DNA from: Pempheris klunzingeri
Lineage: Eukaryota; Chordata; Actinopteri; Acropomatiformes; Pempheridae
NCBI RefSeq assembly: GCF_042242105.1
Contig: NC_092025.1
Span: 14,374,309-14,438,308, forward strand
DNA length: 64,000 bases
Direction of reading: 5' to 3'
The notes under the pieces are model-generated. The model saw only the letters and a program-made list of their open reading frames with translations. It ran no database searches and was not told where the DNA came from. Within the stretch, counting starts at the first letter, position 1, and each line of letters opens with the position of its first letter. Positions 4,914-55,777 of the stretch are shown one piece after another. A program made the position numbers and the translations under genes.

Positions 4914-5206
4914 TTTACTCTCAAAGCAGATCTTTGCCGATGTGTCTTGCAAAGAAGGTGACCGACTACAATCCTCTCAGACATGTAAAGTCGAATCAGT
5001 CCGGCGTGGGTTACTTTGAATCACCAGAAGAGGAAAAACGCTCTTTCCACGATCATCTCGGTGCTCTGTGTCTCTTTGCGGCGAAGAGAGTGAGTTTGTT
5101 TGGGAGGAAATTTACGCATGAGAACGGCGCACAACAGCAGAGCAGAGTGTGGCTGCGTGGAGAGCTGCTGATCCGCGCTCCCTTGGTGGTATTTTTGACG
5201 CCTGTC

Positions 5207-19563: not shown

Positions 19564-22500
19564 CTACCCTCGTAGACAGTCCTCCATAGCTTGCAGCTCC
19601 TGTAGATCATGACAGTGAGGGCCACAGTGAAGGCTGAGGAGATGTCTGACCTTGGGTATGACAGAGAGGGCCGCGCCTCTGGCACCACTAGGAGAGGAAA
19701 GAGAGGAAAGACACTGAGGTGTTATTTCTACCAATAAATCATAAGATAATAGAAATCAGTAGTACAGTTAGTATTAGTTGCATGCCCTGAGAATTTACCT
19801 CACTGTTTAAACAACTTACTCACCCATTGAAGTGCAGCTGAGCTAATTTAAAGAGCTGTCGGCCCAGTTCAATACTGTCTTCTCCGTACTGGGAGCTAAT
19901 AGCGACGGCACTTCGCTCCAGATGGGAGGCTGCCTTATTCCAGTCACCTACAGGAACAGCAGAAGAGAAACGGAGAGCGATAAGAGGACTGCTAAATCAT
20001 GACTAAGTAGAGCTAAAGGTCAGACTGATTTATCTGACACCCCTGGGTGTCTGAGAATTCTGTGCTTCGTTTCTTGGCTTTAGCTGCATATCTGAAATTA
20101 AACATGTTACTATAAAGCACTTAAGCTAATGATCACACCTAGATGTGTCACCACTGTTCTTGTTCAGTGGCTGTTACTACGTTATTACGACTGCCACATA
20201 ACGAAAGTGTCAGGATGGTTATTTCTGACCTTTAAATAAGTTCCTCCACTGCTGCAGTGTTGATAATGTCAATAATGGTTTTTCTTATGTCTATTAAATG
20301 GCACATAAAGTTAACGCTGTTTCTCCATACTGTTTGTACATTTTGATTACAGTTTATGTTTATGTTACTGAGAAACCACTTCTATCAATGGTACATTGGT
20401 TTAAAAGTGAATCATTTCATCCTTAATCTTTAATTAATAATTAAGGAAGAAATGGCATAGTTTTTCTATTCTGAAGTCGTTAAAATGATAAAATTATTTT
20501 AGTATCAATTTTGGACACTTTCAAATGAATGAAAATACAGTCACAGTAAACCCATGGTAACAATACTTCTCATCTTTATTTATACATAAATATATATATA
20601 GTTGTGTTTACAGTATGATTTTAAATAAGCCTGAATGACATTCATCAGATGTCTTGTTTGTGTTTGTATGAGCCATGTGGTCATGGTGATATAAATTCTG
20701 CTTTCGCCCTTGAAATTTAGTGATATATATATATACACAATTAATGTGTAGTAATGTACTGGCGTGATAATGGTGGTGAACCCACTAAGTTTTCTCGTGT
20801 TTTTTTAAACGTCTGCAATGGTTTTTGAAACACCGCAAGGAGAGAGATGCACTTTTTCCATTAATGGACACGTAAAAAACCTTTGGGTGGGTTTGTTAGT
20901 GGAATTTATTAACCAGATACGCAAATTTTCCTATATTGCTATTGTTCTCACCCATTGTGGCATATGCTCTGGCCATGGCATCTGCCAGCTCCCCCTGTAG
21001 AGGGTGTGTCTCTGCCAGGATCAGTCCAGACTGACTCTGGGTCCTTCTCAACTGTCGCAGAGCCTCATCTAGGGGGGGGGGCACAAGAATAACATGGTGA
21101 TGTAACAAAGACCTTCTGAACAAATGTCAATGATACATCACTGCACACTGTATCACAGCCACCTGGTCTCTCTCTCTCCATGAGGTTCACAGCAATCTCC
21201 AGGTCGGCCCTGATCTCCTGCAGCTTGTGGCTCACTTCAGATGAAGACATACTATGACCACAGGATGAACACATCAGTCCTATTCCTCTGTCCCCACTGC
21301 TCTTCTGAAAATCATATCAAGTGTCTCAAAAGTCAACAGTCGTAAGGTAAATCTCAAAAGAGGAAAGAGGAATCATAAAAAACTACAATTAATCACGTAT
21401 AACTGTAACAAAAACACTAACGAACACCTACTTTGAGAGATTCTTTGCACTTGCCACACAGGAGTCCAGACTCATGTGGACTGCCTCCCCAACCCGACCC
21501 CTGCTGTGTGCCCTTGGTACGATCCTCCTGCTCCTCCTTCTGCTGAGTGCAGGCCTCACACTGACACAGGAAGTAGTACTGTTCCTGCAGGAGACGCTGG
21601 CGTTCTTGGGTTGCCATCCTACTGCTATGAGGACCTGGGGGAGGGAGGGCAGAGTTTGATGATAGCACAAGTTATAACTCACAAGATGAAAAAAATGACA
21701 CATTTTCTTACCATAGCAGTGCAGGATCTCTTGTCCAGGATTGATAACTTTAGCTGCTCTGACAGTAGCAGTGACTCCGCCAGCTGTTCTGTACTCTGCT
21801 ACACTCTCACTGCAGTCTGCAGACAGATCTGAACCACTGGTTCCAGTGCTGAACACCAGGCTGGTGTTGGGACAGCAAGAGTGATTCAGAAGGCTAAGAG
21901 TTGGGAAGATTGCAGTAGCGATGCGCATTTCCTTGCTGGACTGCACCGGCGAGTTTGCTGCTCCTGTGAGAGGCAAGAGCTGGAAAGTTAAGTCCATTGG
22001 GTGACTCAGGAACAGTCACGCACTTACTGACAAAGCAATAATGTTTCTATCATGGATTGTACAACAATATAACCATGAATACAAGGACAGTAGAGCTTAA
22101 TCAACTTGTTAATAACTATTCATCTATACCAATTTGGATAAATAGTTAAATATTTGAGCAAAAATTAGTTGGTTCTAATTTCTCAACTGTCAGTGTTTGT
22201 GATTTTGTATATTAAAGTGAATACCTTTGACTTTTGCACTCTTAGTTACACACAACAAACAATCTGAATATGTCAAATTGTGCTCTTGGAACTTGAGATT
22301 GCCATTTTGTGTAATTCTCTGACCTGTATCTTGCAGCATGAGGATTGCCTGGGCATTACACCTCAGCTGCAGGATGTGCCTCAGAGCTGCACTTCCCAGC
22401 AGCCACTGCTCCCCATTCCCATCTGCGGTACCTTCCTCCTCATCTGGCGACTGGCTGTTTGCCGCTGAGGGTCTGCAGAGGTCCGAAGATGCAGATGGAG

Positions 22501-25476
22501 GCCCTGCCCGGCTGAGCTTTTGGTAGAGTGTTGCTATGGTAACCGCACACAGGAAACGCAGCTCAGGGCTGTGGCGGTTCAGGTGGTGCAGGAGGTGAAA
22601 GACATTCAGGTACGAGTTGCTGTAGTGTGAAGCATGACATGGATGGGAATCACTGGACTCTCTGTTTAGATCACTGAGCTTGGACTTTGTGTGCTTGTCT
22701 CTGATTGGATCCCTGGCCTTTTGGATGTCTTTTAACCCCGCCTTGAGTGCGACCCTAAGCGCGAGGTGTGACATCACACCCATCACCATCAGATCTGCTC
22801 CCAGTGGACACTCCCAGCGGTGATGTTCATCCCAAGCGTCTCGCTGGCAGGATGCTGAACAGTATCGGCTGTAACTACACCCCTCACACGGCACGGGACA
22901 CAGTGTTTCAGTCAAACATCTGTGACAGCGCCGGTGCTCCGTTCCAAACAACACTCCTCTCCCTCCGTCCTGCCTTCCTCCCTTCCCCGTCACCTCACCT
23001 ATCCCTGGTATAAGGACACAGCAGTATGGCTCGTCATTAAGAATCACCTCTCCAGCTGCTATTCCCTCTGCAGCCACCAGGTGTCGACCTTTCTCTGGGC
23101 TGAAGCTAACAGCCGCTTGAGGACAAACCCCAAAAGAGAGAGGTCCAAAAGATGACCTTTTTACTCTGTCTAGACCTTTGTGATTCTTTGAGGCAGGATT
23201 TTCCTCTTTAGCCTTTAGCTCCACAGAGAGGTGGTTTAAGCACTGTGTGCGACGGCCCTCTAGTTTGTGCAAAAGATGAGAAGGATAGTCGTTCTCCAGA
23301 GCTTTGTCGATGTCATCAAGGGATTCCTGAGAGGGGAAAAAAAAGAAACCACAACAAAACTCAAGACTTTGAGCAAAATATGAAGGTCACAGACATTTTA
23401 AAACTTATCTAAGTCAGTATTTTAGCATTAAAATGTTGGGCTAAAAGTCTCGTGATGTGTACGGATCTAAACCTGAACCAGGAGATGCTGACCTGAGAAG
23501 ACTGAGAGAGGAATATTTAAGTAATTTCTATGGGACAGTAAGAGAGGTGTGGCTATTTTGGCATAAGTGGTGACAGGAGCTTCATCACTGGACATAAAAT
23601 GATCACTTAACTGATTTTGACTGCACATTAAAATTCATCTGTAGGGTCATTTATCTCTAGACAAGCAGCAATAACAGCCATTAAAGAACCCGGGAATGTG
23701 TCTGATATGCCTTGTTAGAGTCAAAGAAATTGAATAGTCAAATGAGGTGGAGTTAATTAGCCAATCATTAGGCCAATACACTTCAAATAAGACATCATAC
23801 AAGATGAACCCCGAATACCAGAAGAAAATGGATCCCTCAATGATTATAGTATCTCTCAAGGAAAAAGCTCCTGAAGTGAAAATGGGCTAAATGACAGAGG
23901 TAAATATGTCCTTTGGATGATGGCTGCCTCCTGACCACATGTCTGCAGACAGATAGGAGTCAGAGCTAAATGTCTGTCCCCCAGTATATAACAGGGATTA
24001 TATATTTCCTTTGAATCCTGAGACATTATCATAAAGTCACTTATTATGTTTTCTTGCAAATCTCCTAGTATTTGTGTAGACTTAAGTTTAAACAGCATGT
24101 TAGCATGTGTGGACACTGTCTACAGATAATTAAAAAAAGCTGATCACTTTTCCTTGCCAGACACCTGCAGTCAAGTGTTGTTCAAAAAGACACAATCTGT
24201 TAAACACCTACAGGCGTGTTTCCAGTCAACAAATAAGCGTCAGAACTGTTTTAAACAGGTTTTTAATGATACGACAAATATGACACTACCTCATTATTTA
24301 ATTGTTGAAAACGGCGCCAACTCACCCGGTAGTGCTGCAGATGGTAGAGCGCAGCGGAGCGGTTGGCATAGCACAGAGACAGCTGCTCCGAACTTTGGGG
24401 AGCACAGCATACGCCCTGTCATGACAGGAGACAGAGAAGCTGGATGCTGATGCATACTAATTGGGGCTGAGTAAAATGCCATGTTTAAGGCGTACTGCTA
24501 TATAATCCTGAATGCAGTTTTACACCACTGCTCTCAAAATACAAACAATTTATATTTACAGTCAAATTGGACTTCAAACCAGTTTACTAAAGATATTATC
24601 TTTAGTAAACTGGTTCGAAGTCCAATAATATATTTTTACAATTTATACAACTGTATTATTTTTTACTATCACTACATTACTTATCATGTTCAGCCACCTT
24701 CTACAGATCCAATCAACTAAAAAATATAAGAATATAATACATAAGAATATACTTAAGAGGTAAAATATAAATAAATAAAAAGGTCAGATACAAATCATAC
24801 ATTAATCAAAAGTTTGCTGGCATTTTGATTGAAATGGTAGATTTAACATAACCCAGTGTTTCATTATAGTGTCATTGAATTGTATACTTCCTGGTTGATT
24901 CATTCACCTGGGAGTAGTGCAGAGCAGCTGTAGTGTAGTCTCTGGTCTTGAAGCTAGAGTTGCCCCTCTCCCTGCATGTGGCTGCTTGCTCTGTGTCCTT
25001 CTGAACAGAGAATCCTGCAGAAGTCGACTGCAGGAAGTCCACATCATCTTGGCTGTGAAATAGACAGAGACTATTAGAAACAACAGAGAAACCTTCGCTA
25101 TGATCAACAACTAAATCAGTGCCTCTGTGTTCAGCATGTTCCCCAGCAGCAGAAAAGTTGGGGATTATTGTGTACTGCATTGAATACAGCATGCAGAGGT
25201 GAGACAAGTGGTCCGATCAAAAGCAATGCAATGTCCCCACGTGCGGGTTTTACATGGACCTTTGTATAGATAATAAATATGACTGATCACAGATGCTGGA
25301 GAGCCACAAGCATGCAACTACAGACGTAAGCTAGCTACTCACGTTGCCAGAGTTAGCGCCGATTTAAAAACATCATCTATTTCAAGCTGGGATGTAAAAT
25401 GATCCTTTAACTCGGGGTCGAGTCCGGACCATTTCTGTGCGACGTGCTCTTGCCACTGGACACACGGAAGATCCAT
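19564..25476 (-). CDS. smyd4: SET and MYND domain-containing protein 4 (SMYD4)
   Basis: Ten exons join in frame into 777 residues (human protein 804): 25343-25476, 24908-25052, 24326-24415, 22324-23326, 21712-21963, 21432-21634, 21163-21304, 20952-21068, 19824-19947, 19564-19687. All introns are GT-AG. A second in-frame ATG at 25479 directly precedes the chosen one (MMDLP). TPR-like helices lie near residues 70-140. The SET domain is split: its first part (GRHLVAAEGIAAGE, 203-216) precedes a MYND zinc finger with Cys 257, 260, 270, 273, 279, 283, His 292 and Cys 296. The catalytic half carries NHSCCPN at 484-490 and ends EILHCYG. Post-SET cysteines are 565, 567, 570, 601 and 604. A C-terminal helical TPR-like region follows. 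The family comprises putative lysine methyltransferases; SMYD4 has been linked to zebrafish heart development. It is divergently paired with rpa1. No frame damage is seen. Confidence 0.95.
24566..24626. repeat. near-perfect 30-bp inverted repeat with 1-nt spacer
   Basis: The left arm 24566-24595 and right arm 24597-24626 are complementary apart from one mismatch (A in the left arm, C by complement in the right). They are separated by a single T. It lies in smyd4 intron 2 and could form a cruciform in DNA or a long hairpin in pre-mRNA. Confidence 0.9.
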
Positions 25477-26090: not shown

Positions 26091-29000
26091 ATGAGTTTAC
26101 AACTCACAGAAGGGGCAGTCGAAGTGAGCATAAATGTTATTGTAACCGAACTACGTTTTTTGTTTTGTCTTGTCTTGCCTTTTTGTCTTGAGGCTGGTAT
26201 TGCGTACAGGTGCTGCTAGCTGCGTCTATTAGCACTAAGCTAATGTTATATACACACGATTTACATGTCACAGCTGTACCTGCAGCACCATTTATATCTG
26301 AGATTGTTTTAGACTTCTTCTCTTTTAACAAAGGTTTGATTCTAAGTTTGTGTGTTAATGTGGTGAAATAACCGTAGACTTGCTTCATCAGTTATGTGGT
26401 GTGGCCACTTCGTAACATTGTTGGGTCTAGACAATTGATGTCAACAACATGACTGCCTGACATAGACCTAGTTCTGTTTACTCTGAGATACTTTCCTGCT
26501 AGGGGCGTTAGAAAATCACTTCAGTAATCTCCAGTTAATGTTAACTGTAACTTTGCATTAGCAGCAGGGTAATGTGATGGGACAGGATGGGGCCAGGCAG
26601 TGGATACTAACAAGTCCATGTGTGTTATTGTCTAGGCCCTGTATGAAGGCTCGGAGGTGAACGATCCCGTGCTGCAGCTGCTGGTGAGTAAATTGAAGGA
26701 GTCCAGCTCCTCTGTCACAGATTAGGTAACTGCATATATGATGCTGATGGGATGTTGTACATTTCGATTGAGTAAGTAGTTATGGATAAAATATCGTTAT
26801 GGAGTTTCCATGGAGTCTATTTTTAAGATATCCTCTCCAGACTTGCTATAAAGCATACAACAATAATCTGCACAGAATAAAATGTTCTGTTTGTTTGTGA
26901 TGGGCTGTCCACATTGTTGTCCCTCCATTAAAAAAATTACAGAATCCACAAATATGTAAATATGTTGATATGTGTTGTCTCCTACATCTGCCCATTCTCA
27001 GTATATGTGGACTGGAAGTTTTCACATCCCACTTGTGTAAAATGTAAAGATTTTCAATGAATGTGAAAACAACCTCTGTTGTTTTGCTTCTAAATCCTCT
27101 TTTCCTCTGTGTTTAACAGAACATCCGCAAGGTCGGTAACATCTCTGGTCCACCCAGGTTCCGCCTCAAGATGAGTGATGGTCAGCACTATTTGGCTGGT
27201 GAGTATCATGCAGGAGTAATATCATACATTATAAAATACTAAAGTAGTGCAGGAAAATTTGTACGTCAAGTACCAGTGATAGATAAATCTGTTGAATCAT
27301 GTTTTCTAAGGTGTACGTAAATACATTTGAGTATGTATGTTTTTGTGTATGTAGCCTTCCTGCTGGCCACACAGTTAAACCACCTACCACAAGAGGACCT
27401 CCTGGAACCTAACTGTGTGTGCAAGGTGAAAAAGACCACCGTCAGCACATTGTCAGATGGCAGGTGTGTGTTTTTATGCCTCTGTAGTGGCGAAAGTCGT
27501 GGTTGGAGGCATTATGTTTTTGGGTTGTTTGTTTGTCCGTCCCATTCTCGTGAACGCAATATCTCAGGAATGCCTTGAGGGAATTTCTTTTAGGTTACAG
27601 TGACCTCACAAAAAATGGTTTTGGCCATGACTCAAGAATTCTCTAATTATGACAACATTTCACAGAAATATCTTAGGATTAATAAAGTTATGACATATGT
27701 CTAAAAGGCCACAGGTCAGCTTCAGTGTGACAAACGTGTGTCTTTTCACTCTTCAACGCCATAACTCAGGAACAGGACGAGGAGAGATTGTGATCATATT
27801 TCATTTTTGGTGTGATACTTAATTGGTGACAGATATTGATGTAAGCTACAACTTGATTGTTGGGCGGAGGTATACAACCGCGAGCTTGCTTCCTCCCCCC
27901 TCCCCATTTAACGTTATTGTTGCCTTGTGTTCCAGGCGTGTGGTGATTGTATTGGACATGGAGATATTGCAATCGGCTGAGGTAGCTGGAGGGATGATTG
28001 GAAATCCCATTCAATACAATACAGATGGTATGGTTCCTTTAAGATTAACATGCAATGAAGATAGAAAAAGCAATCAACAGCTCCCGTAGGTCCCTTATGA
28101 TGTTTGTACAACTTGCAGGTAGCACATCATCTCCACAGAAATCAGCCCCAAGTGCCTCTGTTTCATCATCCCCTCCATCTGCTGCAGTACCTGGACCCTC
28201 CTATAAGAACAACAGCAGTGAGTGTCATGTCAAAACTTTCTTTTGTGTCATTTTATGCTTCTGTTTGAATAATTATCTTGTCCTCTCAGTCATAACACAT
28301 AACTGGTGTCACAATCTTGTGACAATAATTAATGCCATGAAAATGATAAACATGCTGTTTTATTCATTCAGTAATCACAGAGTCTCTGAAATATTTTTAC
28401 TTGCTGGTTCTTCTGGTCACTTGTATGGCAGAAGCAGCTTTTTGGTTGTTACCTTCTCATTCTCAGTAAGAGTTACTAAAGACAAATGGGATTAGTGTTA
28501 AGCAGCATCTTATTTTGCAGTGTCAGTGGACACCCCTACTAATTATTAAGTTCATGGCTAACAGGTGTATACAGTAAAGCACATGTCCATGGAATCTCCA
28601 TTGACAAACATTTAGAATTTAGAGTGGGTCGCAAAGGGTACAGTAACTTTTAACATGGCACTGTCATAAGATGCCACATTTGCCAAAAGTAAGTTCATTA
28701 CGTTTCTGCCTCGGTCAAATGCCATTACTTATGAAGTAGGAGCAACAACAGCTCAGCAACAATGTGGTAGACCACACAAACTCAGAGTGCGGACGAGTGC
28801 TAAAGTGCGTTCTATGTAAATAGCACCTTTCATCTATCCAAATGGTCTCTAGAAATAACATCAGCGCATTAACTGTGCGCCAGGAGCTTCATGAAATGGG
28901 TTTCCATGGCTAAACGGCTTCACGCAAGCATCACATCACCATGTGCAATGCCAAGCGGAAATGTGTTCTTTGGAGTGATAAATCCAGCTTCACTATCTGG

Positions 29001-35000: not shown

Positions 35001-37730
35001 CTAATCCTAATTATTCTTTTTCCTATGACTGAAAGGCACAAGCACAGTAATTATGAAATTAATAATTGATTGGCAGTCTTACCCAAGAAGAAAAACACAG
35101 TTTCATTAATTGGCACAAACTGATGTTAACGGAGAATTGAGGAACTCTTCAGAGAGATCTGCAGGGAGAGTTTAACTTTCTCAGGCATGTTATCATTTTG
35201 GCAGCTGCTCATATGATCAGATAACAGTGCTAACATTAATGGTGAAATATTTGGGCTGGGTGTTTAATTAAGTTTGTCTGCCTAATGGAAAACTGGTAGG
35301 TGTTCTACCAGTTGCATCAGTATCAGCACCTCAAATTGTCTACAACAACTACAGTTATGGATAACTTTGGCATGTACGTGAGGTAATAAGTATGTGTATA
35401 AATGAACATAATTCGTCCGGACATTAAAGTGAACCACACTGATTCACTTTTCAGACTGCTACACCCAAGGTGTAAGAAAAGGCACTGCCGCAGGTTCTTT
35501 GTTCTGACGGCAGTCAGCGGCATATTATGTAACACTGCTGCGGTCTCTGTCACCATCACCCACCACATACAACACTCACGACATCACAGCTACTCTGTCT
35601 CAGGCTATATATCCTATTTATTCCTTTAATACTGTAAAACTATCCTGTGAATTTAGTGCTTACATCGTGCGCAGTCCAATCTCTTACTATGTCTGTAAAA
35701 TATATTATATACGTTTTATATTCTAAACTGTTCACACCATATGTGTAATCATAGTGCTTTAATAAGGAAATTTGCTCGATGTGGGATCAATAAAGTTTAT
35801 TTTACAGATCAAAGTCTGTTTGCAGATCTGGAGCAGCATGAGTGCATATATTAAAAAAAACAAAAAAAAAACCTTTTGCTGCTCAAGAGGGGCTGTGTGG
35901 GGTCTGATAGATCGCCTCAAGTGATGTCACCTGAGTCAGCATCTGTTGGGTCTGAAAAAAAAAAATGGAGGTGTAGAGTTGTAAAGAACTGGTAGGTTTT
36001 GTAACCAGGATGATGGAATACTCAATTATTAAATTTCATGTAACATTAGTGTTATATTATTGTATCTCGCTTTGTTTGCCAGGAGCCTTTTCTCCTCCAC
36101 GAGGCCGTGGAAGAGGTTTTGTGGGAGAGTCACCGATGAAAGCTTCGCCCTCAAAGTTTTCACCCATGAAAGCTTCGCCCTCGAAGTTTTCACCCATGAA
36201 AGCTTCGCCCTCGAAGTTTTCGCCCACGAAGTTTTCGCCCGCAAAGTTTTCACCTACGAAGTTTTCACCCATGAAGGCTGCCAGCTCTTCTCAAGATTCT
36301 TCAACAAATGTGATTCCTATTGCTAAACTCAACCCCTACCAAAGCAAGTAAGTTTATGTGTGTCTGTTGTATGTCTGCATGTGCCTGCTCTCATGCACAT
36401 TACATGTATGGGCTCCTTAAAAGAATTTAAAGAAGACTTAAATTCTTTAATGGATAGTTTCAACTGAACCTGACTTCTATGTATTCCTCCCAAATTCCAA
36501 GCAAAAGCTTTACTGTATACATCCATGCTTTCACTTTGACCCCCCCCCCCCTTCTGCTCATTCATCAGCTAAACTATTTCCTCTCATGCTGTGACTCGAC
36601 TTCCCTGTTTGCTGCCATTTCTGAGTGGCACTTTGGGGCATGTTTGGAAGAGTGTGTGTGCTTGTGTGCGTGAGCATTCATTTTCTGTATCAATGCATGT
36701 GGCTGTGTGGATTTGTGCGTGTGCATGTTAGTCAGCCCATCTGCATGGAAATGAAATGAAATGACCGATCTTGCCTCAGAAATGAACACTTTAGCGGCAG
36801 GTATTGCCGGATCTCTTTTGGTCTGCCGCTGAGGTTTTGATTCTGTTATTTGGCCTGGTGGGGATTTGGCCAGCCTCGTTTTTACCCCTCTTCCCTCCCT
36901 CTCACAATTTCTTCACCTCCTCCAGGGTTCCATTTTACTTCTGTTTTTTTTCTCCACACGTGTCTTATCGTTTCATTTGGCTTAAGTCTCTGTGTCTGAC
37001 CTTAAAATTGGCCACAAAAAGACAAGAGGAGAGTATAGCAAGATGTAGTTCTCCAGATTGGAGTAAAGGTACCCCGTCAACTCTGTCTCCATGTTTGGGC
37101 TCTGATAACATATCCCTGTTCGAAATTGCAAGCTGTAAAGATAACTGTGCCTCTAGGTGTTGTAATAAACTGATGACTGTTCTAACTTTGAAGTTGTGGA
37201 GTACCTACAGTGAGTAAAACAGATGACTTCAGCAGCTGTTCTTCTGTGTATGTTTGTGTGAAATGAAAAGTGCGGGTGTGTGCCTGTTCGTCTGTGTGCG
37301 GCACAAAGTGTTACATACAGTAGATTATATAGGCATGCTGTACATGTGCACGTGGTCTTTTATGGTCGGTAGTGTGGCTTTCCCATCCCATTCTCCTGGT
37401 GTTAAGTAATAGCATCTCGAGCAGACTATAATTGGCTTTTGGCTGCCATAAACCTTGGTGTAGCAGTCTTATCCATACTGAGCAGGGAATGGGGTTCACT
37501 CTGGGCCAGCAGCTGCTCTCATGATAGAGGATTTAATTGCAGGCAAAGTTATGGTATGAATATCCTCCACTGCACAATTATCAACGCAGTCATAAAGCTC
37601 ACTGCTGCATAAACTGCCTAGCTTGGCTGGCTGTTGTTAAAAACAGAACAAGAAGCACATTTTAAATGCATCCAGGAGTTGGCAGATGTACAACACCTAG
37701 TTCACTCTTTGAAAAGAAAGTTGCTGGATG

Positions 37731-37764
<34 letters not shown>

Positions 37765-40700
37765 CTGTTCATGGAACTTTAAAAAGTCTGAGAAGACACT
37801 CATCCAATTTCCTTGGGAATTGTTCTTTTGCACAGTTGTGTTTCACATTGGTGACTGATGTGAGCTGAGTTGGAATGCTCATTAACAAAAAAAGGAAGCT
37901 TTTTGAAGCATCTCTGCAGCATTCTTTACTGCTTGTACTGACCTTTAGACTGCAGTTGTTCTACTTATACATAACTGTTGTCCAAAAAACATTCTCATGA
38001 TTATTTTCTTAGCAAAGGAAATACATTAAGTGTTCCGTATGCATTCACGTCCACGAAGTCTGTTGATGGATATATTAAAAAAAATTAAAACATGATGGAA
38101 GGCATTTGTGTACATTTCAAGAAATACATTTGCAAAGCTTAGATTTTTGCTATTGGGCATATTTTGATTGAGGTATTCTTAAGTGTGAAATATTGGGACA
38201 ATTTATTTATTTTATTATATCTTGTCATTTAGATAATTTTGTTGACATACACTTTGTAAGTTCTGATTCGTTATATGTCCACTGTGTGTAAATCAATAGG
38301 TGGACTGTCAGAGCCCGAGTCACCAACAAGTCCAGTATCCGCAACTGGAGTAACTCTAGAGGAGAGGGCAAGCTCTTCTCCTTTGAAATATTGGATGAGA
38401 GTGTGAGTACAGGCCTGAATATCTGTCTTTTTACGTGCATGCATGTCAACACATGTCACACATGGCTGTTTTCCATTTTATCCTTAAAACGAAATGTTGT
38501 TTAATGGAAATGTGTTGGTCAACAGGGAGAAATCAAGATCACAGCCTTCAACAAGGAAGTGGACAGGTTTTTCTCTCTAGTGGAGCAAGGCAAGGTGAGC
38601 AGATCCCACTCACCCATATCCATCCTCTCTTGAAGTGATAAGAGCTTCTTGCAAACTTTACTTAAAAACCATAACTTTTGTTCACATCACACACATAGCT
38701 TATTGTACCGCAAGGAAATGTTTGTACTTCAGAATGAGTTTCCAAATGTGTTTTCCATTTAATTTTGATGACGTTGACTGAATATCCACTTGACTATAGA
38801 CAGCCAATATCTTAACACTATAAAAGATTCATAGACTACTTGCAGTGTAAGCCTCAGTCTCAGATATCCATTTTATATGCACGTAACACTTCAAACAAAT
38901 GTATCATTGGTAAAATAGTTCCTGATAAACCCCTCTGCAAAATCCTCTCTTGCCCGCAGGATTTCTGGCCACTGAATTAGGCGGAGGCAAGTATCAGAGG
39001 ATTTGTGGAAGGGATTTTGAAGTCATATTTTACTGAAATATAAACAGTATGTTTGAGACATATTGAGCATATTGAAGCGGAGAGTGTGCTGCTTAGAACA
39101 GTGTGAGAACCTGTCAAATCTGATGTGTTTTTATTGTTTTGCTGTCGTTTTAAGTGTCTGGTTGTGTGCATTGTTGTTGTCATCTGCATGGCTGTTTTGC
39201 AGGCTGTGTTCTCCATGGAGAATGATTTTCTAATGTTTCTCTACTGGCATCAGTAACGCAGAGAGATTATGATTTTATTTCATAATTGAAGTACTCCTGT
39301 TAAAGGATAGGCGAGGATATATTCAAGTCTATTGTCAACAACTTATGGGTCACTGTAATCACTCCTCTCCATACTGACAGAGAAATGATCTCTCCGTGGT
39401 GACTGCAATGGAGGAAATGGGGTAAAAAGTCTTTGTTCTGTGCAAAAATTCATTCTAAAATTTGGCCACAGTGAATGTGAAGCTTCAGCGGTCTGAGTTA
39501 GCCCAATTAAGTCACTGTCTTCATCCTGGTAGTCGTATATAGGTTTACTGCCAGTGTTGTGCCTTGGCATTGTATTTGTCAGCATGTATGAGCCGTGGCT
39601 CAGTTAGGAGATGATGAGGAGAAAACGAGTCCCATTCTGAAAATTAATTAAGAATGTACCTTCTCTATTTGAAATGCTGAAGCTTCATATTAGCTTTGGC
39701 TGAGCTTCTCATACATTTTTGCGTCGAACGAGGCCACTGGATTCTGTCATGGCCCAAGAGGATCTCCTCTAGGCAAGGAGGACCACTCACAGCTGCCAAT
39801 AACACTGTGTATATGGGCATATGAATATTGAATTCAGATTGACTTGAAAAATTTCAGATCTATCCATAAAGTTTTTCTTTTTACATTTATAATATAGTCA
39901 CACAAAAATTATATCCAGGCATTATGAATGAAATGTTCCCACAATAACTGGTATCAAAGAATCTAACATTTGTTAATAGGATAATTTTTCCACCAGCAGG
40001 CCGTGATTCAAGAACTCTGACCTTGCTGGAGCAATTCAAAAGTATATAGAGTAGGTTCCTTTAATGTAATTATGAATAATAAGGAATAATTCCTATGCGT
40101 CACCCTAAAATGAAACCTATGAGCTCAGTTTTTCCGCATGGGAGGTCAAATATTGTAACATTTCCAACATTGAATTCTAGAGAGAGGTCTTTAACAACCA
40201 GGGGACTCAGGGACTGGCTGAAAGAATAAACAACATACTATTGTTTATGTAAAAGAGACACGTGGTCTTATCAGTGTGTGTTGTTTGTGTGAAAATGGGT
40301 GGCCCTCAGTCTGAACACCCAGAACATGCCCTTTGCATGTTCCTGTATACCTACGCAATTACAGACAGGTTAACACATGTTAAAGCTCATGTTCAACTCA
40401 GTCTGGCCCACAGAGCTTAATAACTCAATTAACCCCGGCCATCATTTCACTAGTCACACGGGCTCAGGTATCAGCCAACGGCAGTGACTCCCAACACAGG
40501 CCCAGATCCAATTTGTGCCCTCTGCCCTCCAAAGATAAATAAAGGAATGAATCTGTCTTCCCTTCGTGATCTGAGTATTGACAGAACAGTGAGTGGGTGT
40601 GACTGGCTCAGAGCGGCCAGAATGCTTATCACATTAGTTTCATGCTCCTATCTCTGTGTGGGGTAAATCAGAGAAGAGAAGAGAAGACAAACTCAGAGAG

Positions 40701-43700
40701 AGAGAGGATATTGGAGAGTTGGGAGAGTAAATGAAGACGTGTGCCTTGCATATTGAGTTTAAATTGTGCTGTTTAGCAGACTCGCTCTCAGCTGCTTCTT
40801 ATTTTCTGGTGAATTAGAGAAGTGATGGGGCTGATATGACACCACATCTTAGTTGGACCTGAAGGTCTTTCCACTCTTATTAAGAGGTTTTGGTGGAACA
40901 GAAGCTGTATTGTAATAATAATTTCCCTTGCAGGATCAATGAAGTGGTTGCCCAATTCGATCAGCCATAGTTGCTTCAAATTCACAGGAAATAACCAGTC
41001 TGATTAGGTCTAATTTTATAATGCCAGTACACCTTGCTCTCCCATTCTCTGTAGGTGTACTACATCACTAAGGCTACACTGAAGGTGGCCAACAAACAGT
41101 ACACTGCAGTGAAGAACGACTATGAGATGACCCTTCACGCTCATTCATCCATAATACCATGCGATGACGGTCAGGGCATCCCCACATTGCACTGTGACTT
41201 TGTGCCCATCGCAGAACTGGAGAACAGAGACGCAGACGCCATCGTTGGTAAGAGAAAAAAGTGAATTTATTATGTGTTCATTTAATCATACCATTTAATC
41301 GATAAAAGACCAACTTAAGTGAGTGAGCAGGAAGAGCTTTAGTGCCAAGGACAGTAAAAAAAAAAAGATGAAGACAAAGCCTCACAGAGTTGGAATACAT
41401 ATCACAAGCTCAATTTTTGCAATCAGGACTCAAAAACATTAGTACTTCTCTGATTCAGATAGGTATGTGTCAAACCAATCAGCAATCTGTGTCGAGGGCT
41501 CACATAATAACATGGCCCACTCCCTCTCCAAACTTTGTGAACAACCACTGAAATGAGGTGTTAAAGATAGAAAATGAATTGTGACTCAGAGAGAGTGTGG
41601 CATATGTTTTTTGCAAAAAAACATCCATCAGATATTGATTTTTGTTGATAGTTGAGAGATTTTACCACATTCCTGAATGGCTGGCATGTACAATACATCT
41701 ATTTTGAAAAGCAGTAGCAAGGACCAACAGCTCAGGGAGCGATGCATTAGTCCAGTCAGGCGAAGACAAGGTTTATGTTGTAGTCTGTGTGAAGAAAAGA
41801 GCTGTCAATAAACTTTTGCGATACACCTTACTTGGATGTCTCTGTGAAGAACAGCATTGGCTAGAACACATTTGGCCTCATGCAAGAACATTTTTGCGTT
41901 TCTATCCTAAACCTTTCATAATTTTTCCTCTGAATTTTCTTAACGGTACAAAATTGCTGGTTTCACCCTGATGAATGCAAAGATGTATGCATACGGGACA
42001 TTTTTGAAATTTAAGTCCCAAAAATGCAACCAAGGAGTAAAAGAAAAACAAAAAACTGTGGAGCTTCAAGCCCTGCTTTTGGAAATCATCAGATAACAAG
42101 TTCAGCCAAGTCAGCAGTGGTCTTAGATGACCTGTTAACCATTAAATATTAATGGCATATACAGCTGTCAATAACATGTAATCAGAGCAGCGCTGTACTG
42201 TGACAGAAATAAAGGGCAAATTAGTTAACAGTCAGTGACTAATATGAAAGGTGGTCATGTGACAGTCAGGGAGATATTAGATGAAATAATATCATAGCAG
42301 GTAATGTTGCAGGAATATACTTGACAGCTACCTGCGTAACAACCCTAAGGCAGCTGTGGGAGTATTATCCAACAATTAGTATATAAGTATATGCCTCAAA
42401 TTTTCAAAATCTAAAAAGCCCGGCAGCCATGATGATATGATTATGTACAGTTTATTCCTTTGGCATTAAGTTTGTCTCGTTTTTTTTATTTTAGTTCATT
42501 CAATATTCTTTTCAAACTCCAAATTCATTCAGATTGAGGCATTAAGGATTTCAGGTCCAATTATGTTATTTTCCCTATGTGGTGACAGTCAGGCTTTCTG
42601 TAGATGACTTAGGTTAGTTGCTGCCAGTATTGGAACACTTTGGGTTATCAGCTTGATCATTTCTAACTGCTCAATCAACCGAGACAATTACATGTTATAG
42701 ATATTAAAAAATAGACAGGCATGTGCCAGTCAGTCATGTACCAGGTGTCCTGGAAGAATACATTATGACAGGGTCAGAGGCAAGGTTAATTCAGGCATAT
42801 AGTAAAGTAAGGAGAGATAAAAAAGGATAATGCTCATTCCACTGTTGTAATGAGGGTAAGTTGCGGTTCCTGCCCTCTATGCCTGACAGGAATGTCTTAT
42901 CTCTGCGACAGGTAAATTGGGATGGTCCAAATGTAGATTGGGGTTGGAATCAGTGATTCAACAAGGTGCTCTGGGCAATCTGCTCAGTATTATTAGTGAG
43001 ATGATGCACAGGCATGACAGTGATGTTTCTGTCATTGTGGCAATGAGGATGTAATTTTTAAAAGCTCCTCTTGGTCTGTATGCACGTTTTAAGGGCGAGT
43101 ATCAAGTTTTCAGTAGTGTGGATTCATTATTATTATTATTATTATTATTATTTTGGTATCTCTTCTTGAACTATGTTTTTCTACCAAACCTTTAGACATA
43201 ATTTAACATTCAACCTCTGTTGGTAAATGAAAGCAAATACAGGAGGCCATATAAGAATTTCACTCAGCATTAATAAGACAGGAATAAGACAGAACTATCT
43301 CATCCTAGAATAAATAAACAAGATTACAAATATGACCAGACATCCGGTACTGGGCGATCAATCACAATTCAGTCTATTATAAGAAAACAAGTTGACTAGG
43401 TGCTGTAAAACATTTAATAGAGGAATAAGTATCACAGTTACAGTGAAATTTAAAATGCAAGTTCACACTAAATCTGTGGGTTGAGATGTTCTAGCCATTC
43501 CATTTCTCACCGCACCATCAGCACAGGTCCATTTGGTCTCTTGCACTAGTTATCACATGGCCAGATGTGTTTTTTGCACTAATGTACAGCAAAGGGTCAA
43601 GAAAGCATACAGCAACTGCTGGATGGCAGCACAAGCAGAGCTATTATTTATTTTAAGTGCTGGACACGCCATATTAGAGAACAGATTAATGGTTGTAAAG

Positions 43701-46700
43701 AGGCGTAAACAACATACTGTCACGTACAGAGTGTACGATTTATATAGGGTTACACTCTGAGTAGTAATACTGCATGACTACATAAATGTAAACTATGAGC
43801 AACACAAGGCAGCACAGAAACACACAACACAATTTAGAGATGCAGTTTACCTGGAGGAGTGTGTTTGTGTTGGTCGCAGAGAGGCAGTGTTACATGTCCT
43901 GTGTGTCATCTGTTGTCTCTCCATTCACTCCCTCTCCATTCCCTCTCTCCCTGCTCCTTTGTTAAGTAGGGGATTATAACATGGTAATGAGAACTGTCAG
44001 CCTGTTCCTGTGGTGATAATGGAGTTCAGAGGTGGATGACATCGTCTCAATCATAATGGAATTAAGGAGGGCTGAGAGAGCACAGACAGGGAGCAATGGA
44101 GGAACGGCAGAGGAGGGGGTAGAGTTTAGAAAAAGGTTAGCAGCAGTAGAAGACGGTAGGAAGAAGTTCAGAGAATGGCTGGTGTGCAAAATTAATATTA
44201 TAATTTTGTCCACAACTTCTATATTACACATGGGCACTAGTTCTGATGCTCACAAACACTCAAAAAACACTGTCGGTTTTATTAGTAAAGAAAATACATT
44301 CAACATGTTTGGCAGTTTCCCAAGGATGCACACAACGCGTTTTAGTGAGTAACATTAGCTGTAAACAAAATGTTTTTTCTGTATGAGAGAAACTCCAGAG
44401 GTAAGCTATTCATCATATAAAAAAACCCTCTGCTGCTTACAGCTTTGGCTGCTTGTTGTTGTGTACATCTATCTGTACATCACATTCTCATGATATCTCA
44501 GCAACACCTTGAGGAAATTTATTCAAATTTGGCACAAATTTCCACATGGACTTAAAGATGGACTGATTAGGTTTTGGTGGTCATATGCCAAAGGTCACTT
44601 TGACCTCAAAAAGCACGTTTTTGGCTATAACCCAAGAATTAATATGCTAATTGTGACAATATTTCACACAAATGTGTAATTGGATAAAATGATGAAGTGA
44701 TGACATTTAAAGTCCAAAATGTCAAAGGTCAACTTCACTATTAGGCCATAATGTTCTGCCGAAACACTTTTCTTGCTGTTCATCGCCATAACTCAGGAAC
44801 AGATGGGGAGATTGTGATTATACTTCACATTTGGTTGGATGCTGAATTGGTGATACTAATCTTGGGTACGGACAGACATGAATGTAAACTGCAACTTGAC
44901 TGGTTGGCAGAGGCTTACAACCACAAGACGCCAGTTCTAATTTTAATGACAATAGGTTGTAAGACCATTATTGGAAAAAAAGAGGACTTATAAGTCATCA
45001 ATGCTCATCTTTTGATTGCAGTTTGTCTTTTCTTTTCTTTTTCTTTTTTTATGAAGAAATGGACTGAAGGTTCAATTCATTGAATTAAAATTAATGCTCT
45101 TATCTTCTGTCTTTTTGCACAACTTCTTGATTTCATTTGTATTTGTGACTATCCCATTTGTTGTACAATAAGCGCTTTTATAAATAAATTTGACTTGTTC
45201 TGATTTAATGTTTAATAATAGTCATTGGAGACCATGCTCTTCACCTTCTTAGAGCTCAGCAGTCACTGCTCTCCAGTGCAGTAATCCTGTATGAAGGTTT
45301 TAGGCCTTGAGCATGACAGGAAACATGAATGAGGAATGAGTGTGTTTGTTATGATTTGGAGTGTGGGCCTGGGTGTTAGCCAGCCTGTTATGACATTTAT
45401 GTTAGTCTGCTGTGACTTGGCAATATCAGAGGGGTGTCAACTCTCTGCTGTGTCTTTAGTGCTTATGATGCGATACCCCACTTCATATTTTGTATATCCG
45501 GGAGGAATTTTTACACATAACGCTCTTCACCTAATGCACTATTGTATCCTTTTTCTTACCTCATTTTAAGCATATGTGTTACCTGTGTTCCTGAGCTATC
45601 TATAGATGGAGATGTAAAATGACTCCTACCTGTCCGCAGATGTGATTGGAGTGTGTAAAAGTGCGGATGATGTATCCCGTATCACCACTAAGACCAGCAG
45701 AGAAGTCTCCAAGAGGGCCCTCAACCTAATAGACACAACTGGCAAAGTGGTCACAGCCACATTGTGGGGAGGGGAGGTAATAACTATAATCTTTCTCTGT
45801 CTGCCTGCACCCCCACCTCTCTCTCCTCTTTCTCTGTACCTAGGGATGGATTTGCAATTTAACATAAAAACATGAAGAGCATGTTCTAATTAATCGTGTT
45901 TCTGAAGGAGCCCATCTGTGTATGTGCCTACATATCCTATCAGTGCACGCATACATAGCCGTTTGATTGGGTTTTCTGGGCTGTAAAATTTGGATCGGTC
46001 AAATCATTCCTGTGACCTTCAGGAGTGTTTTGGACTAGAGTCCCTGATTTGAGACGGAAGGCTAAATAACTCTCGAATGTGCATGAAATGGCACTATTCT
46101 TCTCTAAGCTCATTCAATCTGCAAGAGCTAATCCCTTCTCTTTGCCAAAATCCAAAAATGACTTTCAAATTAACTTGTAGGTTGTCCAATTATAAAAGCA
46201 AACCATACCACATATTACATTCTGGTCTCTCCAAGTTGCAGAAACAGGCTCAACATACAAGTAACAATAACACAGCTGCTTTTGTCGTGTCTCGTCCTCC
46301 ATCTTTCCCTCCTCAATTACTGTTTTTGACACAGTGTTTTTTCTCTCTTCAGGCAGAGAAGTTTGACGGCTCTGGGCAGCCTGTGGTCGCCATCAAAGGA
46401 GCTCGCCTGTCAGATTTTGGGGGCAGATCTCTCTCTGCTTTATTCAGTTCAACAGTCATGGTCAACCCAGACATGCCGGAGGCCTTTAGACTGAGGGCCT
46501 GGTGAGTCACACTCGTGTGCACGCATCTAAAGCTCACACACACATTCATTAATACATACAGAATAGTCACCGGCACCACACAAGACATGGCAGGTGTAAA
46601 CAGATAGATAAATCACTCTGCAAATAGATTATATCTTTTTGTTGTAATGCTTATGTGTAAAAAATCTATTATAAATGCCTAACACAGAGCATGTTCACTC

Positions 46701-48201
46701 TCACACACACACACAGATGAACAAACCTATGTACAAAGCCCTGACAATCACATGTCAGGAAACGTGGTGACATGTCCTCCTTCAGTCCCAGCGGGGCTCT
46801 AGACGGGATGTAGACGGGATGTAGACAGGACTGGATGGAAGCAATAACAGAAAAGAAAAGCAGAACATAGGTATTTCTAGATTCCAGATCTGAAGTGCTA
46901 CGTTATGCACATTGAAAGACGGGGACACAGAGAGCCACATCAAACTGGATTCTTAATAGCAGTTCCTGTGGAGGGATTTTAAATTATTATGACTCATTCA
47001 CTCATTTAGGCTGTTCCCAAGTCTGGCCACCACAATTGTATTTTTCCCCCTTCTGTGTGTGTGTGTATGTTCATATCAGTGCGTCAGTGTGCATATGATT
47101 GCCTGGTTGTTACACTGAAAGCTATTCTTAGGCAGAAAATTGCATCAAACAGCGTACTCAGAGCTTCAAAGTCTGAATATAGTAAATAAAGGGGAGTGTT
47201 TGCTAGTACCTGTGGGCATTATTCTGCTCACTCTTTCAGTCATTAATTGTCTGGTTTATAAATGTGGCTAACTGCTCCATGAACAATAGCTTTGGCCATT
47301 TCTGTGTGTCTGTTGCATTAGTTATGAGTTACATGTGTGTGTGAGAGAGAGGAGGGGCAGGCTCCATTGCTTCAGCTTTAATCTTGGTCTTATTAGTCTC
47401 TAGTCAATACACCATCTCATCCTGACTTTCAAAGGGCTAAATAACTAAAAAATAGTGCCCCTCCTTCCTTTCATTCCTCCTTCAGTCCTTCTCTAATCCC
47501 TGGCTTTCCACTCGATCTCTACTGCTGTTTGGTCCTCTCTCCAGTTTTGCATGCTGACAGCAGTGAACAAATGACAATGTATGTATTCAAGGAGTGGACA
47601 TGCTGTTTTCCATTCCTTTCTAACATTTAGGTCGGTGCTTTACAAAGACAAAGAGTGCCTGTCTGACTCTAGCTCCTGTGGCGATGTGCTGCTTTGTTGG
47701 ACTGTTTTGACCAGGCTTGCTTGCATAATTGAAGGAAACTGATGAATTTGGATGATGCCTTGATTAGATTGCTTTGCTCGGCTAGAATACAGAGCGGGAG
47801 TCACACTGATGCATTAAGATATTAAAGGGAATATTAAAAAGGTAGATAAATGAATAGATGGAGTGGGTAGACAAAAGGAGAGAGACGAACAAGTTTTTGT
47901 TTGCCCTTACCCTCAATGAAGAAACTGTGTATATGTACAGAAAATTATGTAAATAGAAAAAGCAGGTGCAGTGCATAGTACAGTGCAGTGTCTCCTTCAA
48001 AATCTGTTAATGTAGCACAACAGCCCATACAAATGCACTTACTTTCACAGCCTCTTTTTGACAAATCAGTCAACTCCTGCACATGTTTACTGGTGACTAA
48101 TATTGGTGTTATATCTTGTGTAGTTTAATCAGTTCAGTATCCAGGCATCACATCACTTTTTTACGGTGTCCCCACACTCTAAATAATGCGTTTTATATTT
48201 C

Positions 48202-48232
<31 letters not shown>

Positions 48233-51200
48233 TGTATGTATGTGTGGTTTGGTGCACACACGTGTTTGCACATTTATTTGAACATATGTTCTGTGTGTTT
48301 TTAATGTCCACACTACAGGTATGACCAGCAAGGCTATGCACTGGACAGCCAATCCCTGACAGAGACGTGGTCAGTGGGGAGCAGAGCAAAGATGAACTGG
48401 AAAACTCTGAGTGATGTTAAGAATGAGCACATGGGACAAGGAGAGAAGGTGAAGTGCATACGTGTGCATACACGTGCATACATACATGCATACATACATG
48501 CATACATACTGCACATAAAGCCTCACACTAATAAATATCAGAATAGTCAGACATCTAAAAACTGGGGCAGATGAAAACAAAATGTTTTTCATTAATTGAT
48601 TTATTCTTTTGATCTGTAAAATGTTATGAAATAGTTGGTGACTTTAAGTTTCACCTTCAGTTTTGCCCAACCAGTTGTCCAAAACCCAAAGATATTCACT
48701 TCATAATGATATGGCATAAGGGATTGTTTGCAATTTTCTGCTTGAAAACAGTTGCAGATTAATTTCATGATTCATTTTGCGATTCAGCTCTACAATGAAA
48801 CTAAATCTGCTAAATCTGTCCATAAATCAGATTACTTTGTTATTCAGGGCATTGGAACTCATACTTTATTAATACACTATGAAAGGACCTAGTCTTCAAA
48901 AAATAACTTGAAGACTAAGTAAGTGGTGGAAATTGCAGGCTGTGAAGAAGGTTTTATGTCTTCATTCCACTGAATGTGTGTTGCGTTGACAGTATTTCTG
49001 TTTCACTGGCTCTGGTTGTAGATTGATTTATGCACTTGCATGGTTCAGTGTGGTCCACAATGAAATAACCAGAATAAGAACCTTTTAAAGAGAACCACAA
49101 GTGACCCCAATAATTTTACTTGTCTTTACTTATGTTTTTGTATGGCTGTGTAAGTTAAGTTTTTACTTTTGAGTTTTAGATTTCTTTACTTGCTTGCAAT
49201 TGAGTCACAGAACAGGGGATGTAGAGCAGATCAGATGAAAATCTGATCTGAAGCCTTCCGGTGTAAACTGCAACAAGTAAATCTTGTAATTTGTGTTGCA
49301 GTTTCTGAGCCGGTTCTTTATGAAAACTTTGTCTGTAAGCAGATTGATATGAGTCAGAAAATCCTTCTCTCACTTAGGCAGCTGGCTACTTAGAAGACTG
49401 AAAGACACCCCTGCAGATGATGTAACATCAGCATAGCTATGTTGCAGCAGAGCTTGATATCAGAAAATCTTTCAACATTGTAAGATGAAAACCGTAAACA
49501 CTGGGTTTTTGTGTCAGACTCTGGGTATTAAAAAGTCAGAGCATGACTGTTTTGCACCAAAGGTTTGCAGTCACTCAAGGACATATATTATTTTGACGGA
49601 CTTTGACGTCAAGAGTGTGACTCTCTCATTTTCCTGTCACTTACCTGCTCTTAATACACTATCATCATGTTTTTATGCTTTTATGTTTTTCTAGCTGCAC
49701 ATACACTGTAACCTGTAGCTGAAATGACCTGTTCATTGGACAAATCACTTGAAAAATATTGGATTCCACAAAATAGTAACTGGCATCATGATATGCTAAA
49801 AACAAGCACTTTTATTACATAATACATGGTAGTTAAGTTGTAATAGTTGTTTTTTCATGTAGAAATTACACAGAGGGCTTCTTATTTAAACCTGTCAGAA
49901 GATTTTCTGTGAACCAGCCAGGATTTAGTGATTTTTTTTTTTTAAACTGACTGCTTCTCAGTCTCATTTGAATATAAGAATTTAGACAAACACAAATCCA
50001 CAGTCAGTCTTCTATTCATTGTAAATAGAGCAGTTCTAGACTCTGCTTTGCTGTGACTTCATAGATTAGAGTCATGGCTCTCTTGTTTTAGCTGTGGGAG
50101 GGTGATAATCACATACTAGCAGTACTGATCGAACTGCAGTCCGCCATTGGAGGAGCACGTGAGAACTCTGAAATTAAACTGTGTACCATTTTAAGAAGTG
50201 TCATCGCATAAAATTATCATGCTTTTAACTAAAAGTAGAGTACATGTAAGTGGTACGCGCCACTCTCTAATTAATTAGGTTTATCTCCGACTAGTCTCCC
50301 TCATCCCTCACGTTTAATTACAAGCCGCTTACAAGTAGCTTCAAAATCTGTTTCGTTTCTAATAAAACTTTCTAATTATGTGTTGGAGGTGGAGGAAGCC
50401 TATAGGGCATAACATTACCAGAAGGAAAGTAACACGGACGAGAAACGTGGGCTAGTGAGAGACGGGTAGAAAAGCGAGGCAGAGTCACTTAAACTTCATG
50501 TCACTTACAAACTTGCGTTGAAGGATGGAGAGGAACAAGGCCACAGGGAAAAAAGTAAGATGGGAGTGAAGAGTGTGGTGACTAAGAGAGAAAAGTGACA
50601 GGGGGCATTGAAAAGAGGATACAGATAGGAACGGTTAACTGGCAGATGTGGAGAAAGAAGTTGAAAGGTGAGAATGTGTAAATAATTCAAGATCAGATTT
50701 TTTTTTTCCTCCTCTTTTTCAGTTTTTTTTCCCCTTCCCTTATTCTCTTTGTCTTCTCCTCTTTTCTGTCCCTGCACCCTGTGTACCCCCAACTGTTTGT
50801 GTAATTGAACGGCTTTAAGGAGGTTGTCTATCACTTACTCTGAGGCTGCAGCTTTAGTAATAATAATGGAATCCAAATCATTAGCTTATAGTTTCAAGGA
50901 ACCTCATTTGACATTCTACCTGTTTGCCACCATGTATGTGCGTGACTGACTGTTTGTGTATCCATGTGTTTGTGTTTGTGTGTGTATATGTGTGTGTTGT
51001 ACAAGCCATTTCTAATTAATGTAGCGGCGTGTGTGTGTGGTTTTGGGACAAGCATTAAAGTTGGCATGTGCAGCCACGTCAATTATGTGAAGTAGATTTT
51101 CACTTGGTTGCCCTTCCACATACAAATTTTAATTGCATTTAGGTGCCAGAAGGTGACACAGGGATTTGGTGTGATAAGAATGAAAACTATTTTCAGAATG

Positions 51201-52737: not shown

Positions 52738-52778
<41 letters not shown>

Positions 52779-55723: not shown

Positions 55724-55777
<54 letters not shown>

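What the first reader, a model, noticed from the sequence alone, without database searches (positions are those of the whole stretch)
36130..36279. Ten-copy S-P-x-K pentapeptide array in the RPA1 linker
Exon 7 of rpa1 encodes ten uninterrupted five-residue units, each a complete CDK consensus (S-P-x-K), with serines exactly every five residues from 170 to 215. An eleventh SPQK site lies at Ser125 in exon 6. The array sits between the N-terminal protein-interaction OB fold and DBD-A, a flexible linker that in human RPA1 has no SPxK series as I know the sequence. CDK regulation of RPA is known mainly on the RPA2 N-terminus, so this would add a dense multisite CDK target to the large subunit. The motif also resembles histone SPKK repeats that bind the DNA minor groove. 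The 30-bp higher-order unit suggests recent expansion by unequal exchange or slippage, so copy number may vary between individuals.
Basis: partly seen in the sequence, partly recalled or inferred. Interest (0 to 1): 0.75.

Follow-up and report, generated by a model that had tools for sequence, protein, structure and literature searches.

The report
CDK-site array in fish RPA1 paralog
Many spiny-rayed fishes carry a second copy of the DNA-protecting gene RPA1 whose flexible linker has grown a repeat array of kinase-site motifs, which could make this copy switchable by the cell cycle; the motif is real and old, but its phosphorylation is untested.

Summary
The array is real: window 36130-36279, in exon 7 of 17, encodes ten uninterrupted S-P-x-K pentapeptides (Ser170-Ser215). 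The rebuilt protein equals an NCBI protein of Pempheris klunzingeri. Main correction: this is not the canonical rpa1. Six percomorph species in my results have two RPA1 proteins: a conventional one of about 600 aa without array, and a diverged 'RPA1-like'. The window copy lies beside a smyd4-type gene; a 2006 paper placed one of two pufferfish RPA1 genes with Smyd4. Of 113 hand-chosen 'like' rows, 97 have at least 5 full sites and 87 at least 3 in tandem; 118 of 120 rows of the human-query search could be scanned and have none; 24 canonical-type rows have one site in total. In the Pempheris array 14 of 14 adjacent-unit differences at S, P, K codons are silent; 30 of 30 at the other codons change the residue. 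Best reading: a basic, disordered, multisite proline-directed (CDK-type) switch. Phosphorylation is inferred. Neutral minisatellite drift is the main rival.

The parts
36130..36279 (+). Tandem array: ten 15-nt units encoding S-P-x-K-x (Ser170 to Ser215 lead serines); 30-bp higher-order unit in the first six
36091..36102 (+). SPPR (Ser157), a further full [S/T]-P-x-[K/R] site in exon 7, followed by GRGRG
28130..28141 (+). SPQK (Ser125) in exon 6; SPQK or SPRK at a similar place in several array-less 'like' proteins
36083..36347 (+). Exon 7 of RPA1-like (265 nt): linker, array and N-terminal edge of DBD-A
28119..28217 (+). Exon 6 of RPA1-like: first part of the linker
26091..28027 (+). Exons 1-5 of RPA1-like: N-terminal OB fold (26091-26123, 26636-26683, 27120-27198, 27355-27463, 27936-28027)
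38300..63684 (+). Exons 8-17 of RPA1-like: DBD-A, DBD-B, DBD-C with zinc cysteines (38300-38402, 38526-38594, 41055-41247, 45640-45776, 46353-46501, 48319-48448, 55092-55268, 55437-55544, 55784-55870, 63583-63684 with stop)
20899..23386 (-). smyd4-type neighbour (ORFs with MYND finger and SET domain), divergent to RPA1-like; the last ORF (20899-21126) had no Pfam match; SMYD4 is also the neighbour in tetrapods

Best explanation
SHOWN: the window holds the array-bearing RPA1-like paralog of a percomorph fish. It keeps the tested ssDNA-contact and zinc residues, but its linker, predicted disordered, has many S-P-x-K sites in a 5-residue tandem array. INFERRED: the linker is a multisite switch for a proline-directed kinase, most likely CDK. 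Unphosphorylated, it is a basic tether (17 K+R against 3 D+E in 127 residues, about +14) that favours DNA or self-contact. Phosphorylated at up to 12 serines it would turn acidic (about -10 by arithmetic), weakening those contacts and changing how the partner-binding head is presented during S/G2/M, while canonical RPA1, which lacks the sites, would not respond in this way. Site number, which drifts by slippage, would set the size or threshold of the switch, with purifying selection keeping S, P and mostly K.
For: Ten consecutive units, 12 full sites. Widely retained: 97 of 113 hand-chosen species rows have at least 5 full sites, 87 at least 3 in tandem; 100 of 120 rows, isoforms included, have at least 3 tandem SPxK. 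One site in total in 24 canonical-type rows, none in 118 of 120 rows of the human-query search. Same-species pairs, sites in like/canonical: 7/0, 12/0, 17/1, 12/0, 12/0, and 2/0 in Neogobius. Inside arrays S/T is kept in 899, P in 893, K/R in 780 of 938 inner pentads; acidic residues at positions 3-5 in 44 of 2814. In Pempheris 14 of 14 adjacent-unit nucleotide differences at S, P, K codons are synonymous, and 30 of 30 at the x codons lie in codons whose residue changes; first/second codon positions vary at 0 of 6 against 4 of 4, p 0.0048. F238, K263, E277, W361, F386 and four zinc cysteines are kept in 105 of 105 rows (roles recalled). Linker pLDDT 24-29 per block. Precedent: multisite phosphorylation of the RPA2 N-terminal disordered region reduces RPA phase separation (PMC10113159, passages).
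Against: No phosphorylation datum was found or testable here. The +3 lysine or arginine is missing in 158 of 938 inner pentads, and P0109 has 40 S-P but 23 full sites, so strict CDK consensus is not uniformly kept. Three sticklebacks and three African cichlids have in-phase runs of only 1-2 units, so a long array is dispensable there. A 15-nt minisatellite in a disordered linker can spread without selection. The codon test rests on about four distinct changes in one species, and units are copies of each other; a silent TCA/TCG difference also exists at the x codon between non-adjacent units. The species sample is biased: the query contained the array, which favours array-bearing relatives. The structure model is weak overall (mean pLDDT 54.6, 24-row alignment, DBD-C poorly predicted too), so the low linker value supports disorder only mildly.
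Confidence: 0.5

Rival explanations
1. Neutral minisatellite: a 15-nt unit slips in a permissive disordered linker of a relaxed, fast-evolving duplicate. The kinase consensus comes from the seed sequence and is copied without function.
For: Congeners differ in total or full S-P sites in 8 of 8 percomorph genus pairs, though gene models and isoform choice may add to this; 'like' copies are more diverged from the tetrapod reference than canonical ones in DBD-A, DBD-B and DBD-C and have a long stem branch; identical adjacent 30-mers; contraction in sticklebacks.
Against: S, P and K codons vary only at silent positions while x codons vary freely in the same units; S-P kept in about 95% of inner pentads across 95 species (partly by construction); further SP sites outside the repeat; the tested core residues are conserved.
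Confidence: 0.3
2. Constitutive DNA-binding tether: the proline- and lysine-rich repeat works as a SPXX/SPKK-like basic arm that adds contact to DNA; phosphorylation is incidental.
For: Net positive linker, acidic residues nearly absent from the units; adjacent GRGRG stretch.
Against: Units have one basic residue, not the two of SPKK; the proline-directed core, S-P, is kept better than the lysine. Minor-groove binding by such motifs is recalled, not tested.
Confidence: 0.12
3. Length device: the array only lengthens the tether between the N-terminal OB fold and the ssDNA-binding core.
For: Linker is 127 aa here against 68 in the canonical paralogs of Xenentodon and Betta.
Against: Length alone predicts no preference for silent changes at S, P, K codons nor depletion of acidic residues.
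Confidence: 0.06
4. Assembly or gene-model artefact.
For: Tandem repeats are prone to misassembly; some predicted isoforms of one genome differ in array length (Sander, Etheostoma).
Against: At least 3 tandem SPxK units in 87 of 113 species rows; 8 'lgn' rows hold a whole reading frame with 5-9 sites (4 of the 8 with at least 3 in tandem) on contigs of 2.1-2.6 kb, which, against a 37.6 kb gene, I take as spliced RNA or a processed copy (inference).
Confidence: 0.02

Closest known systems
Canonical RPA1 / RPA70 (human RPA1, teleost rpa1)
   Same: Same four domains, same tested ssDNA-contact residues (Tyr or Phe at 269) and zinc cysteines
   Different: Linker carries 12 SPx[K/R] sites instead of none; K88 of the N-terminal basic cleft is replaced (K in 5 of 105 like rows, 24 of 24 canonical-type rows)
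RPA2 N-terminal disordered region
   Same: Disordered multisite phospho-target on RPA; CDK1/2 are among its kinases (PMC10113159, passages)
   Different: Different subunit; no tandem array (recalled); mixed PIKK and CDK sites
Neurofilament NF-M/NF-H KSPXK repeats (Cdk5 targets; PMC11502590, passages)
   Same: Repeated S-P-x-K kinase sites in a tail domain
   Different: Cytoskeletal protein, not related (recalled)
Histone SPKK/SPXX motifs (sea-urchin sperm histones, H1 tails; recalled)
   Same: Repeated S-P-basic motif near DNA, CDK-phosphorylatable (recalled)
   Different: SPKK has two basic residues; the units here have one, with Met, Ser, Thr or Ala at position 3
Plant RPA1A-RPA1E paralogs (PMC4731521, abstract and passages)
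   Same: Duplicated RPA1 with unique and overlapping functions
   Different: Independent duplication; no SPxK array in the passages seen; the abstract says animals generally have single RPA genes

Membership tests
RPA1 / RPA70 | Rep-A_N, OB (DBD-A), REPA_OB_2 and Rep_fac-A_C domains in order | tested here: met
   Pfam, all four above cut-off; human RPA70 match E 2.1e-234
RPA1 / RPA70 | ssDNA-contact aromatics and zinc cysteines | tested here: met
   F238, W361, F386 and four Cys in 105 of 105; position 269 Tyr in 95, Phe in 10; at K183 Pempheris has Asn (Lys in 83 of 105); residue roles recalled
RPA1 / RPA70 | Forms a heterotrimer with RPA2/RPA3 and binds ssDNA | not testable with these tools
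   -
Canonical teleost rpa1 | Groups with canonical teleost RPA1 | tested here: not met
   Separate 'like' group, support 100/100; NCBI name '-like'
Whole-genome-duplication pair (ohnolog) of teleost RPA1 | Two copies in paralogous blocks of the ancestral smyd4-rpa1 region | tested here: inconclusive
   Window copy beside a MYND/SET gene; fugu/tetraodon have RPA1 with SerpinF2-RTN4RL1 and another RPA1 with Smyd4; tree does not fix the timing (AU p 0.275 and 0.255); the canonical Pempheris locus could not be searched (tool busy)
CDK multisite substrate | Clustered [S/T]-P-x-[K/R] in a disordered region | tested here: met
   12 sites; linker pLDDT 24-29 per block in a weak model
CDK multisite substrate | Sites are phosphorylated by CDK in cells | not testable with these tools
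   -
SPKK DNA-binding repeat | Ser-Pro-basic-basic units | tested here: not met
   0 of 10 units have two basic residues

The most novel reading that the evidence does not exclude
Percomorph fishes run a second RPA complex whose large subunit is switched by the cell cycle through a selected array of CDK sites, and a coding minisatellite tunes the number of sites, so that the dose-response of an ssDNA-binding complex evolves by repeat slippage.
Probability: 0.3. Interest if true: 0.82.

Novelty: new variant of a known kind. Interest (0 to 1): 0.62.

Why it matters
Animals are said generally to have single RPA genes (abstract of PMC4731521). An old duplicate of the large subunit, intact in its tested ssDNA-binding residues but with a linker rebuilt as a kinase-site array, would be a natural experiment on how multisite phosphorylation controls RPA. 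Copy numbers from one unit (the stickleback Gasterosteus, a cardinalfish, a mudskipper) to a run of 39 in-phase S-P (the snailfish Pseudoliparis, 23 full sites) give ready-made variants for testing dose effects.

Tried and rejected
Rejected: the only-rpa1 reading (two proteins in six named species); artefact (many species); SPKK proper; the PF02095 labels on some relatives (an extensin-type plant repeat, name recalled), which I take to reflect the SP-rich repeat. Inconclusive: date of the duplication. Led nowhere: paper searches for an RPA1 paralog in fish returned nothing relevant in their listings; led to the 2006 synteny paper. I saw no paper on the array in the listings of searches; only open-licence papers are held. 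Not done: expression by tissue, nucleotide analysis of other species' arrays, genotyping, location of the canonical rpa1 in this genome.

Rows chosen and dropped: one search used one row per named species (113: 92, 21 only), picked by me from the 231 distinct rows of those two calls; other isoforms, unnamed 'lgn' rows and fragments were left out. The query contains the array and so favours array-bearing relatives; the query was cut so that proteins over about 633 aa were excluded, which favours array-poor ones. Mola and Neogobius rows have truncated linkers and count as having none (one search counts 2 sites in residues 105-300 of the Neogobius row). The three protein searches listed 120 each of 1337, 2266 and 2275 hits. 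The 24 canonical-type rows were taken by length and identity; 9 are unnamed and 13 were placed in the tree. The rows are tetrapods where named; some are unnamed; one search skipped 2 of 120. One search dropped 22 of 113 and one search dropped 5 of 30 because a script anchor failed or the protein was short. One search used the 105 'like' rows of at least 600 aa.

Full report
What is there. The window belongs to Pempheris klunzingeri: the protein joined from 17 exons with AG/GT borders (26091-63684, + strand) equals NCBI protein P0002 of that species over all 659 residues. It has the four RPA1 domains in order. Exon 7 (36083-36347) encodes ten uninterrupted S-P-x-K-x units at 36130-36279, lead serines 170 to 215; Ser125 (SPQK, exon 6) and Ser157 (SPPR, exon 7) bring the full sites to 12. 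Shuffled linkers did not come near.

It is a paralog. The third protein search showed that some percomorph species have a second, conventional RPA1 of about 600 residues. In Xenentodon, Betta, Echeneis, Seriola and Lates both copies are listed; the 'like' copy has 7, 12, 17, 12 and 12 sites, the canonical 0, 0, 1, 0 and 0; in Neogobius, whose 'like' model is truncated, the counts are 2 and 0. The 'like' proteins form one group with 100/100 support. The tree does not say whether the split predates the teleost lineages sampled: both tested groupings survive (AU p 0.275 and 0.255). Gene order helps: next to the window copy, on the opposite strand, lies a gene with MYND and SET domains, matching SMYD4, which flanks RPA1 in human, mouse, chick and frog; a 2006 paper reports two RPA1 genes in fugu and tetraodon, one with SerpinF2 and RTN4RL1, another with Smyd4 on a different chromosome, and ascribes the dispersal to whole-genome duplication (PMC1609119, section 11 in full and passages). 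The array is not mentioned in the parts I read. I could not search this genome for the canonical copy, because the tool stayed busy.

History of the array. Among 113 species rows of the 'like' copy, 97 have at least 5 full sites, 62 at least 10, 87 a tandem run of at least 3 SPxK; S-P to S-P spacing is exactly five in 972 of 1520 intervals. The sample is biased both ways: 92 rows came from a search whose query held the array, 21 only from a search limited to shorter proteins. 'Like' proteins of Centroberyx (Beryciformes), Myripristis, Lucifuga (Ophidiaria) and Thalassophryne (Batrachoidaria) have no array; Sphaeramia and Periophthalmus (Gobiaria) have one SPMK (lineages). Tuna (Pelagiaria), trumpetfish (Syngnathiaria) and Pempheris (Eupercaria) have arrays. 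On a tree of 91 'like' and 7 canonical rows built without the linker, array presence (at least 3 in-phase S-P) needs 5 changes, 3 of them forced by starred branches, against a mean of 18.4 in shuffles; that quick tree resolves deep percomorph relations poorly and puts Sphaeramia and Lucifuga among array-bearers. The simplest account is one early origin from a GKSPMKA-like seed, aligned by eye with GKKAPSAMPSTPGG of the canonical linker, and later contraction in sticklebacks and some cichlids. Some 'like' proteins without the array already carry an SPxK near Ser125 (SPQK in Centroberyx gerrardi, Lucifuga and Thalassophryne, SPRK in C. affinis; not in Myripristis), so kinase sites seem to have been added in steps. 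Lepidogalaxias has 5 sites of its own, not in a tandem run.

Selection or drift. Across 95 species with at least four in-phase S-P, 938 inner pentads keep S/T in 899, P in 893, K/R in 780, the full motif in 736; acidic residues fill 44 of 2814 places at positions 3-5. These counts favour conserved units by construction, since arrays were found by their S-P dyads. Within Pempheris the 14 adjacent-unit nucleotide differences at S, P and K codons are all silent and the 30 at the other two codons all lie in codons whose residue changes; by position 0 of 6 against 4 of 4 (p 0.0048). That four distinct changes at S, P and K codons should all be silent has probability 0.004-0.008 under simple mutation models. 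Units are copied from each other, so these numbers overstate independence, and between non-adjacent units one silent difference (TCA/TCG) occurs at an x codon too. All 8 percomorph genus pairs differ in total or full S-P sites, so slippage is probably active, though gene-model differences may add to this. Transcripts of the 'like' gene probably exist: 8 'lgn' rows hold the whole reading frame on contigs of 2.1-2.6 kb with 5-9 sites, 4 of the 8 with at least 3 tandem units; at 74-81% identity none of the 8 is from Pempheris.

How it may work. The tested core is intact: F238, K263, E277, W361, F386 and the zinc cysteines are kept in 105 of 105 rows, with Tyr or Phe at position 269; at K183 Pempheris has Asn and 83 of 105 rows Lys. 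One basic-cleft lysine of the N-terminal fold (human K88) is kept in only 5 of 105 'like' rows but in 24 of 24 canonical-type rows, which hints at altered partner binding; the other cleft residues tested (R31, R41, R43, R91) are mostly kept (93 to 104 of 105). The linker is basic (17 K+R, 3 D+E in 127 residues) and predicted without structure (residues 120-228 below pLDDT 50; the model as a whole is weak). Twelve phosphates would reverse its charge. [quoted passage not shown] in the same paper RPA1 alone did not form light-induced droplets. A review lists four candidate PIKK/CDK sites on human RPA70, T180 among them (PMC10888239, passages). I therefore favour a charge switch by a proline-directed kinase, CDK first. 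Each step after the sequence is inference.

Verdict. A new variant of a known kind: an RPA1 duplicate with a tandem kinase-site linker.

Noticed in passing
window 3843-4976, - strand: Open reading frame of 378 aa with leucine-rich repeats (Pfam LRR_8); best solved relatives are the IGF acid-labile subunit and other extracellular LRR proteins; not identified further.
   Followed up: partly
N-terminal OB fold of RPA1-like, residue aligned to human K88: The basic-cleft lysine is Ser, Ala or Thr in most 'like' rows (K in 5 of 105) but Lys in 24 of 24 canonical-type rows: a second derived feature of the paralog, in the partner-binding head.
   Followed up: partly
related proteins P0012, P0018, P0020, P0024, P0048 (Sander) and P0038, P0042, P0045, P0046, P0100 (Etheostoma): Predicted isoforms of one genome differ in SPx[KR] number (9-14 and 5-16): either splicing inside the array or read-mapping artefacts of repeats.
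   Followed up: partly
P0319 (Lepidogalaxias): A non-percomorph 'like' protein with five SPx[KR] sites of another spacing, perhaps an independent gain.
   Followed up: no
window 55740-55784: A long GT run directly precedes the 3' splice site taken for exon 16 (TTCCTGAG), an unusual acceptor context.
   Followed up: no
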